A DNA stretch of 24,643 nucleotides from Coriobacteriaceae bacterium. Lineage in GTDB: Bacteria > Actinomycetota > Coriobacteriia > Coriobacteriales > Coriobacteriaceae. How positions within the stretch are numbered: the first letter of the stretch is position 1; each line of letters starts with the position of its first letter. The notes under the pieces were generated by a model that saw only the letters and a program-made list of their open reading frames with translations, made no database searches and was not told the DNA's origin. A program made the translations under genes and the position numbers. The stretch is taken from positions 8,628 to 33,270 of the forward strand of contig CABJEP010000019.1 of the NCBI GenBank assembly GCA_902364645.1, read 5' to 3'. This document shows positions 23,082 to 24,643 of this stretch, one piece after another.

Positions 23082-23759
23082 ATGGCTATTACCCCTGCTG
23101 ACATTCAGGCTCAGACCTTCTCTGAGGCCAAGCGCGGCTACGATCCCGCCGAGGTCGACGTCTTCCTGGAGACGCTGTCCTCTGAGGTCGACGCCATGCT
23201 CGCCAAGATTGTCGATCTTAAGGGTCGTCTGACTGCTACCGAGCAGCAGCTTGCCGATACGCAGGCCCAGCTTGCTCAGGCTCAGGACGCCGCCGCGCAG
23301 GCCGTTCCCGCCGCTCCTGTGGCCGCTCCTGCACCCGACTTCTCCGCTCAGGAGCGCCAGATTTCCGCGGCGCTGATCGCTGCCCAGCAGACCGCCGAGG
23401 GTATCGTTAACGACGCCAACGAGAACGCCGAGCGTATCCGCAACGAGGCCGACGCCAAGGCCCGCGAGGTCATCCGCCAGGCCCTGACCGAGAAGCAGGC
23501 CGAGCTCGAGGAGATCGACCGTCTGAAGGCTTCCCGTGAGGAGTTTAAGGCCGAGTACCTCAAGCTCATCCAGCACTTCATGGACGATGCCCAGAACTCC
23601 TTCCCGGCCGATCTCATGGCTTCCACGCCGGTCGGTTCTGCCGCTTCTTCGGCTGTGACCGTTCCTGCTGCCGAGCCGCTGCCCGTCGCCGAGCCGGTTA
23701 TCCCCGTTGCCGATCCCTTCGCGCCGATCGACAACTTCGCCGCCGACGACTTGGACTAA
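23082..23759 (+). CDS. divIVA: DivIVA domain protein
   Basis: 225 aa. The N-terminal membrane-curvature-binding DivIVA domain is clear (ITPADIQAQTFSEAKRGYDP, then EVDVFLE, residues 3-30), followed by a short coiled coil (about 32-70), an A/P linker, and a longer coiled coil (about 88-172). A Pro/Ala/Val-rich tail ends the protein. DivIVA/Wag31 proteins mark poles and septa and recruit growth or division partners. The ATG has an AAAGGAG site. TATACT (23007-23012) and TATAAA (23015-23020) at the end of yggT could be -10 elements of its own promoter, though no good -35 is visible. Last gene of the division cluster. Confidence 0.94.
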   Translation: MAITPADIQAQTFSEAKRGYDPAEVDVFLETLSSEVDAMLAKIVDLKGRLTATEQQLADTQAQLAQAQDAAAQAVPAAPVAAPAPDFSAQERQISAALIAAQQTAEGIVNDANENAERIRNEADAKAREVIRQALTEKQAELEEIDRLKASREEFKAEYLKLIQHFMDDAQNSFPADLMASTPVGSAASSAVTVPAAEPLPVAEPVIPVADPFAPIDNFAADDLD

Positions 23760-23787
23760 CGATCGGACTACAATCTAGCATCCTTGT

Positions 23788-23816
23788 GAGGAGCTCGCGC
23801 CTGTGGGCTCCTTTTT
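23788..23816 (+). terminator. Intrinsic terminator after divIVA
   Basis: AGGAGC (23789-23794) pairs with GCTCCT (23807-23812) across a 12-nt loop and runs into five T; a further T6 follows at 23821-23826. It lies 30 nt after the divIVA stop. Confidence 0.8.
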
Positions 23817-23836
23817 GTAGTTTTTTGGGACATGCC

Positions 23837-24304
23837 TTAATTTCTACCTTTTTTGATGATTTTAAATACCGTGCTACGGGGGATGCCTGTTACGAGTTCG
23901 ATTTGTTTGAGCGAAAGTCCGATGTCTGCAAGTTTGATTCGCGCTTCATTTCGCGGTGGTTTTTCCAAGCTTTTGACTTGCACGCATCGCAAAGGATATA
24001 AGGCGGCTTCGGCAACTTCACGATAATCCTGCTCAGAAATTGACCTTCCGGTTTTGATGTAATACGCATTGGGAAGTCCGGACGTACTAAATCGATAGAA
24101 GCTCTCGGTGCTGCCGAGCAGGGCGTTAATCGTTGATGTGTCGGTAATCTGCGGCTCAGTCATGTATTCGTGAAAACTGCTCCATCGGTATTCCAATAGG
24201 GAGGCACGTCCCCCTTTGACTGGGTTATCGTGGATATACCTCATGGCTTGCAAGAGCTGATTGTCGTCTTCGATAGGCTTGCTGTAGAAGCGACCCTTGA
24301 ACAC
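23837..24304 (-). pseudogene. 5'-truncated Y1 (IS200-like/REP-associated) transposase fragment
   Basis: The 155-residue frame matches the C-terminal half of Y1-type single-strand transposases: VFKGRFYSKPIEDD, then LLQAMRYIHDNPVKGG and YRWSSFHEY. The final part, LSLKQIELVTGIPRSTVFKIIKK, resembles a helix-turn-helix found at the end of some REP-associated members. The HUH metal-binding motif and the N-terminal fold of about 110-140 residues are missing. The frame stays open upstream to about 24418 and reads QKTGLEGPVFKGRF across the family-like junction, but before that it becomes AT-rich and unlike the family, with no ATG. The only start in reach is GTG 24304. It is therefore almost certainly inactive, cut near 24310-24340. 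Confidence 0.8.
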
Positions 24305-24325
24305 GGGGCCCTCCAGCCCGGTTTT

Positions 24326-24355
24326 TTGTATAAAAAGCGATATACTAGATATAAC
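24326..24355 (+). promoter_or_regulatory. Candidate promoter of the structured RNA
   Basis: TTGTAT (24326-24331) and TATAAC (24350-24355) are separated by 18 bp. The -10 matches consensus at five of six positions; the -35 is modest. Transcription would begin near 24361, upstream of the stem-loop series. The region is generally AT-rich, so chance matches are more likely here than in the GC-rich part. Confidence 0.4.
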
Positions 24356-24360
24356 GAAAC

Positions 24361-24546
24361 AACGAACTGAATAAAGAATACAAAAAAAGAGCCACGACCA
24401 GTTAAAGCCTGAGAAACTTTAACTGCGAGCCTTAATTGATTACCACCAATCAATTAAAGAAGTCGAGACCCAAAATTTGGTAAAGTATTTAATTACTTTA
24501 TTAATCAGATACTTAAATATCTGTAAACCCATTATATCGGGTTTTT
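24361..24546 (+). ncRNA. Putative structured RNA: serial stem-loops ending in a terminator
   Basis: No protein frame of merit exists here, but perfect stem-loops follow one another. H1: 9-bp CAGTTAAAG/CTTTAACTG (24399-24407, 24417-24425; 9-nt loop CCTGAGAAA). H2: 10-bp TTAATTGATT/AATCAATTAA (24432-24441, 24448-24457; loop ACCACC). A small CCAA/TTGG element is at 24470-24480. H4: 7-bp TAAAGTA/TACTTTA (24481-24487, 24494-24500; loop TTTAAT). H5: 6-bp CAGATA/TATCTG (24506-24511, 24518-24523; loop CTTAAA). An intrinsic terminator follows at once. Such an ordered series is hard to explain by AT-richness alone. It could be a free small RNA, an mRNA leader, or the RNA part of a defence or mobile element whose protein lies beyond the window. 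I recognise no family. Confidence 0.5.
24525..24546 (+). terminator. Intrinsic terminator ending the structured RNA
   Basis: AAACCC (24525-24530) pairs with GGGTTT (24539-24544) around an 8-nt loop, and the T-run is 24542-24546. The orientation fits + strand transcription. ACCC at 24468-24471 could alternatively pair with the GGGT of the stem, so an antiterminated form is conceivable. Confidence 0.65.
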
Positions 24547-24643
24547 GAGGGGATTTCAAGTCTTTAAGAAGATACCAGGCAATCAATTAAGAAAAACGGC
24601 TTATAGGACAAAATGTGTGTCCACTTTAGGGGCATCGGCGCAG
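24547..24643. other. AT-rich edge region without a gene
   Basis: No coding frame is supported. AATCAATTAA, the right arm of stem-loop H2, recurs at 24581-24590 with similar flanks (ACCA before and GAA after). GGACA/TGTCC (24606-24610, 24618-24622) forms a short dyad, after which the sequence turns GC-rich (GGGGCATCGGCGCAG) at the window edge. This change could mark an element boundary or an insertion-sequence end, but the window stops too soon to tell. Confidence 0.3.

What the first reader, a model, noticed from the sequence alone, without database searches (positions are those of the whole stretch)
24361..24546. Unannotated AT-rich RNA locus with four strong consecutive stem-loops and its own promoter and terminator
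Seen: perfect stems of 9, 10, 7 and 6 bp in series, three of them with 6-nt loops, followed within 2 nt by an AAACCC/GGGTTT-T5 terminator and preceded by a TTGTAT-N18-TATAAC promoter candidate. No protein is encoded. Composition contrasts sharply with the GC-rich division genes, and a broken transposase lies beside it, so it looks horizontally acquired. Known classes with multi-hairpin RNAs next to a protein partner include retron msr-msd RNAs, RNA antitoxins including those beside HEPN Abi-type proteins, transposon guide RNAs and mRNA leaders; I cannot assign it to any of these.
Basis: partly seen in the sequence, partly recalled or inferred. Interest (0 to 1): 0.72.

Follow-up and report, generated by a model that had tools for sequence, protein, structure and literature searches.

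The report
Stranded plasmid copy-control antisense RNA
The hairpin-rich stretch is a 268-base scrap of a well-known enterococcal and streptococcal plasmid (the leader of its replication gene and the matching antisense RNA), stranded in a gut Collinsella genome between a broken transposase gene and an insertion sequence; the RNA itself is already known, its location is unusual.

Summary
The hairpins are real, but this is no new RNA. Rfam RF00235 (Plasmid_RNAIII) matches 24524-24397 on the MINUS strand at 146 bits (cut-off 60). 24331-24597 is identical over 267 of 267 bases to Enterococcus faecalis plasmid DNA and 266 of 267 to pIP501. [quoted passage not shown] the - strand is the antisense RNAIII gene with a good promoter.

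The piece is cut on both sides. Left, it joins a truncated REP-associated transposase gene, so copR and the native upstream part of the repR promoter are missing. Right, at 24598, an IS1249-family element of Collinsella begins; repR is not in the window.

The leader is in 0 of 43 genomes of the genus, so the arrival looks recent. A scan of species genomes gave one comparable repR-less copy, in a Streptococcus suis contig beside guaA.

Most likely: a remnant of an Inc18 plasmid that entered Collinsella, with an RNAIII gene that may still be transcribed and probably no present role. Boldest open reading: it acts in trans as an incompatibility determinant against incoming Inc18 plasmids (0.07).

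The parts
24331..24597 (+). Inc18 plasmid DNA: leader of the repR mRNA (from just inside the pII promoter region to about 84 bases before where repR starts in pIP501)
   Evidence: 267 of 267 bases identical to E. faecalis LR961960, 266 of 267 to pIP501; in pIP501 the match ends at 536 and repR starts at 621
24397..24524 (-). antisense RNAIII (Rfam model extent; the transcript probably runs on to about 24389)
   Evidence: RF00235, 146.1 bits, cut-off 60, full model; fold z -6.9, 0 of 200 shuffles
24531..24559 (-). promoter of RNAIII (pIII): TTGAAA-N17-TATAAT
   Evidence: 11 of 12 consensus matches; present unchanged in aligned pIP501 and LR961960
24525..24546 (+). attenuator hairpin AAACCC/GGGTTT with T run
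24387..24396 (+). 5' antiterminator arm that pairs with 24538-24546 in the full leader fold
23840..24330 (-). truncated REP-associated tyrosine transposase (RAYT) gene, 5' part missing; joined to plasmid DNA at about 24330
   Evidence: NF047646 E 2.1e-6, 27.7 bits, below its cut-off of 80; no Pfam family at 0.001; relatives in 37 of 43 genus genomes; alignments start at residue 2-4 of the frame in 15 of 15 relative loci
24598..24643 (+). first 46 bases of an IS1249-family insertion sequence (25-bp terminal inverted repeat); the window ends inside it
   Evidence: IS end found in 12 of 58 related genomes; complete copy L005 1502-2855, transposase NF033544 441 bits

Best explanation
A remnant of an Inc18 (pIP501-type) plasmid in the genome of a gut Collinsella. 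In the intact plasmid the + strand makes the long leader of the repR mRNA and the - strand makes antisense RNAIII; when RNAIII binds the growing leader, the antiterminator pairing is lost, the AAACCC/GGGTTT hairpin forms and transcription stops before repR, which keeps copy number low (published for pIP501; here only sequence and predicted folds are shown). In this window the piece is joined to a broken RAYT gene, without copR and without the native upstream part of the repR promoter, and is cut by an IS1249-family element, so no repR follows in the window. Inferred: RNAIII can still be made from its intact promoter, the sense leader weakly if at all, and the piece has no present role unless an Inc18 plasmid enters the cell.
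For: Full-length RF00235 match; 267 of 267 identical bases to plasmid DNA; 104 plasmid records with a match, all of Bacillota genera; intact pIII promoter; leader fold with antiterminator, and attenuator when the RNAIII stretch is blocked; compensatory changes in one stem; RAYT homology up to the left junction and an exact IS end at the right one; 0 of 43 genus genomes hold the leader.
Against: The window's own assembly is not held, so the DNA beyond the IS, and with it repR, is unseen. No expression data. In one of six related leaders (pTEF1, L048) the terminator arm pairs elsewhere in the unblocked fold. RF00235 stems 1-3 show no variation, so covariation supports only stem 4.
Confidence: 0.87

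Rival explanations
1. A larger Inc18 replicon is integrated and only interrupted by the IS: repR, oriR and more continue beyond the window, so the RNAIII gene is not an orphan.
For: The window ends 46 bases inside the IS; a simple IS insertion would leave the rest of the leader on its far side. Complete IS copies show an 8-bp target duplication (L005).
Against: The left side already lacks copR and the promoter upstream part, so the replicon is at least partly broken. RepR was found in 0 of 43 genus genomes (no positive control in that call).
Confidence: 0.35
2. Assembly chimera or contamination: Enterococcus plasmid DNA wrongly joined to a Collinsella contig.
For: Perfect identity to Bacillota plasmids, absence from 43 genus genomes, position at the end of the window.
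Against: Two separate joins would be needed around 268 bases; the right one is exactly at the first base of an IS native to Collinsella, and the left one shares only a few bases.
Confidence: 0.1
3. A new multi-hairpin RNA of another kind (retron, RNA antitoxin, transposon guide RNA).
For: Strong hairpins and a nearby transposase gene.
Against: Full-length match to RF00235 and near-complete identity to plasmid leaders; no other Rfam family at E up to 1 in 23700-24643; the RAYT gene is unrelated DNA joined at a breakpoint.
Confidence: 0.01

Closest known systems
RNAIII / repR leader of plasmid pIP501 (Inc18; Rfam RF00235)
   Same: 266 of 267 bases, same RNA, same promoter pIII, same attenuator
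   Different: copR, the upstream part of the repR promoter and repR are missing here; host is Collinsella, not Bacillota
Copy in Streptococcus suis 2187 (L054)
   Same: 266 of 266 bases; RNAIII complete (146.1 bits); no repR found in the 8 kb held
   Different: A copR relative with an altered end is kept; lies beside guaA
IS-cut leader copy on pRE25 (L049)
   Same: Leader separated from repR by an IS, RNAIII model match complete
   Different: On a plasmid, other Inc18 lineage, copR kept; match to the window ends at 24544, before the pIII -35

Membership tests
Plasmid_RNAIII (RF00235) | covariance-model score above the curated cut-off, full length | tested here: met
   146.1 bits against 60, model positions 1-131
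Plasmid_RNAIII (RF00235) | antisense to the repR leader, from its own promoter | tested here: met
   minus strand of DNA identical to the leader of an Inc18 plasmid; promoter-like site 11 of 12; transcription itself not tested
Plasmid_RNAIII (RF00235) | length of 136 nt (PMC4981023, section 6) | tested here: inconclusive
   24389-24524 is 136 nt, but I set the 3' boundary with a sequence marker of my own; the Rfam match itself spans 128 nt
Plasmid_RNAIII (RF00235) | stops repR transcription by attenuation | not testable with these tools
   predicted folds agree; needs RNA work
Functional Inc18 replicon | copR, intact repR promoter, repR and oriR present | tested here: not met
   copR and upstream promoter sequence absent at the left junction; repR not found in the window; beyond 24643 unseen
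Other structured RNA family (retron, toxin-antitoxin RNA, guide RNA) | match to such a family in Rfam | tested here: not met
   only RF00235 at gathering scores in the window and at E up to 1 in 23700-24643

The most novel reading that the evidence does not exclude
A repR-less RNAIII gene outside the plasmid acts as a standing RNA barrier: it stops repR transcription of any incoming Inc18 plasmid and so keeps these plasmids out of its Collinsella host; the copy in Streptococcus suis would be a separate case of the same domesticated incompatibility gene.
Probability: 0.07. Interest if true: 0.65.

Novelty: already known. Interest (0 to 1): 0.22.

Why it matters
It explains an apparent new RNA as a textbook plasmid copy-control RNA seen from its other strand. 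What is unusual is the place: near-perfect Inc18 DNA of the enterococci and streptococci, joined to native DNA and to a native IS, in a gut actinomycete. It suggests that such plasmids reach Collinsella in nature, and it offers a simple test of whether a stranded antisense RNA gene can still hinder them.

Tried and rejected
Rejected: retron, RNA antitoxin and guide-RNA readings. Rejected: decayed coding region; in the plasmid relatives no annotated feature underlies the match in 59 of the 60 rows listed, of 104 records, and the 60th record has no annotation (those gene tables are incomplete).

Led nowhere: junction pattern in genome contigs, 0 stretches; leader patterns in viral contigs, 0 in each of three scans; leader in the phage collection, no match; 23760-24330 in plasmids, no match. 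RF00235 in 396 genomes of the phylum, 0 (stricter filters, and none of the 14 control genomes rang; the same family was found in 2 of 2 genomes known to hold it). RepR in 43 genus genomes, 0 (nothing rang, no positive control in that call). Papers: 'Inc18' with 'Collinsella' gave 1 paper, whose passages do not connect the two; 'Inc18', 'Actinobacteria', 'gut', 'pIP501' gave 1 paper (listing only); terms for a chromosomal incompatibility remnant gave 0; S. suis with guaA and copR gave 0; Collinsella with pAMbeta1 and others gave 1 congress abstract book (listing only). These searches cover an open-licence library only.

Rows set aside: of the 12 of 395 and 8 of 284 genomes with leader DNA matches only 3 and 1 cover the leader; G1041 matches 66 bases of the query; the others match about 21 to 68 bases and were not followed.

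Odds of the bold reading are unchanged.

Full report
WHAT IS THERE. The hairpins are real. The + strand of 24361-24546 folds at -38.2 kcal/mol, z -5.0, 0 of 200 shuffles as good. The minus strand of 24388-24524 folds at -43.0, z -6.9, 0 of 200. An Rfam scan of the window gives one match at gathering scores: RF00235 Plasmid_RNAIII, 24524-24397, minus strand, 146.1 bits against 60, full model. A lax scan of 23700-24643 adds only a sub-threshold match of the same family on the + strand, 25.7 bits.

IDENTITY. Among 72,556 plasmid records, 104 match 24322-24597: Enterococcus 87, Streptococcus 7, Ligilactobacillus 5, Lactococcus 2, Vagococcus, Bacillus and Pediococcus 1 each; 70 of the 104 cover at least 80% of the query. 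Against fetched loci, 267 of 267 bases (24331-24597) are identical to E. faecalis LR961960 and Vagococcus vulneris L053, and 266 of 267 to pIP501 and pGB354. In pIP501 the match ends at 536 and repR starts at 621. [quoted passage not shown]

MECHANISM IN THE PARENT PLASMID. From PMC4981023 (abstract, passages and section 6 seen): RepR is rate-limiting; RNAIII, 136 nt, induces premature termination in the repR leader; CopR represses the repR promoter; copR and repR are separated by a 329-bp leader region. PMC5703833 (passages) tells the same. In the window's full leader fold the 3' arm of the terminator (24538-24546) pairs with 24387-24396. With the stretch covered by RNAIII blocked (24389-24524), the AAACCC/GGGTTT hairpin forms at -6.6 kcal/mol. 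That stretch is 136 nt long, but I set its lower end with a marker of my own, so the agreement with the published length is not independent. The same switch appears in 5 of the 6 related leaders folded; in pTEF1 (L048) the arm pairs elsewhere in the unblocked fold. These are predictions; attenuation is published and not shown here.

COVARIATION. On 6 RNAIII sequences, 4 distinct, 99.3% of cells pair. Five of nine pairs of the last stem change on both sides; stems 1 to 3 never vary, so they are neither supported nor opposed. Shuffles reach the covariation score in 0 of 500, but the number of two-sided pairs in 118 of 500 and the number of pair types in 361 of 500. The changes separate two lineages and may be one event. 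Of 8 Inc18 loci scanned, 5 reach the family threshold; the divergent leaders L050 and L051 and the partly matching L052 do not.

PROMOTERS. The only promoter-like site reported in 24200-24643 is on the minus strand, 24559-24531, TTGAAA-N17-TATAAT, 11 of 12. Shuffles give 0.8 such sites on average, so its weight comes from its place just before the RNAIII start and its presence in the intact plasmids. Its -35 lies across the left junction, and the plasmid's own upstream sequence is gone. Which hexamers form the repR promoter is not given in the passages I saw; that it is weakened here is inference.

LEFT JUNCTION. Left of about 24330 the minus strand reads the C-terminal part of a REP-associated tyrosine transposase: NF047646, E 2.1e-6, 27.7 bits, below its cut-off of 80, as a fragment would be; Pfam names no family at 0.001. 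37 of 43 genus genomes hold relatives. In 15 of 15 relative loci the alignment starts at residue 2 to 4 of the frame that opens at the junction, so homology reaches the junction. Of 15 loci taken around the same divIVA end in relatives (L016-L030) only L016 has a trace of such a gene, 58 residues at 38%, with a stop inside.

RIGHT JUNCTION AND HOST. From 24598 the DNA matches the end of an IS found in 12 of 58 related genomes. The copy in L005 is 1354 bp with perfect 25-bp inverted repeats, has a 374-aa IS1249-family transposase (NF033544, 441 bits) and is flanked by an 8-bp duplication. The window starts this IS at its first base. The host genus is Collinsella: genome G008 of the same set has the IS end at 237918-237963 of a 899,693-base contig, the same length and coordinates as NZ_OY725717.1, Collinsella aerofaciens.

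DISTRIBUTION. Leader DNA: 0 of 43 genus genomes; the same kind of query finds it in other groups, so the method works. RF00235: 0 of 396 genomes of the phylum with stricter filters and no ringing control, against 2 of 2 genomes known to hold it. An exact 41-base pattern in genome contigs found 2 stretches: Vagococcus vulneris, with repR at 96% protein identity, and Streptococcus suis 2187. In the S. suis contig the leader with a complete RNAIII (146.1 bits) follows a copR relative with an altered end; no repR is found in the 8 kb held; guaA lies beside it (NF000848, 804 bits). The contig starts about 1 kb away, so the rest of that element is unseen. In 395 genomes of the order of the Vagococcus genome, 3 have a long leader match and all 3 have repR; in 284 genomes of the genus of the S. 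suis genome, 1 has a long match, that same genome. pRE25 has a leader copy cut by IS1216, a precedent for stranded leaders made by IS activity.

READING. The simplest history: an Inc18 plasmid entered a Collinsella (pIP501 has been transferred to Streptomyces, abstract of PMC4981023), a part joined the chromosome inside a RAYT gene, and a resident IS1249-family element later inserted. Shown: the identity, both junctions, an undamaged RNAIII gene. Inferred: chromosomal location (the next gene is divIVA), expression of RNAIII, no present role. Not visible: whether repR survives beyond the IS.

BOLDEST READING. A stranded RNAIII gene could still inhibit an incoming Inc18 plasmid in trans. For another plasmid, pSA564, a 269-bp leader fragment is an incompatibility element (PMC8129170, passages). 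An undamaged RNAIII with no repR, here and in S. suis, is compatible with this; recent arrival explains the perfect identity as well, and two cases do not make a pattern. I give it 0.07.

VERDICT. The RNA is already known; the placement is a mildly interesting case of plasmid DNA crossing between phyla.

Noticed in passing
L054:699-3170 (Streptococcus suis 2187, NZ_POJH01000055): copR relative, Inc18 leader and complete RNAIII without repR in the 8 kb held, beside guaA: a second stranded copy of the same module.
   Followed up: partly
window 23840-24330: RAYT gene fragment downstream of divIVA; one of 15 related loci (L016) has a decayed RAYT trace in the same intergenic space.
   Followed up: partly
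L005:1502-2855: IS1249-family element of Collinsella, 1354 bp, 25-bp perfect inverted repeats, 8-bp target duplication.
   Followed up: yes
NZ_OY725723.1 (hit H42): A 1,628-bp Collinsella aerofaciens record filed as a plasmid begins exactly with this IS end; it may be an IS circle or an assembly fragment.
   Followed up: no
L003:4361-5732: RepR of E. faecalis LR961960 matches in two overlapping pieces in different frames, which suggests an interrupted reading frame in that record.
   Followed up: no
L049:601-901: pRE25 carries a leader copy that ends at IS1216; the record has a second leader place that was not fetched.
   Followed up: partly
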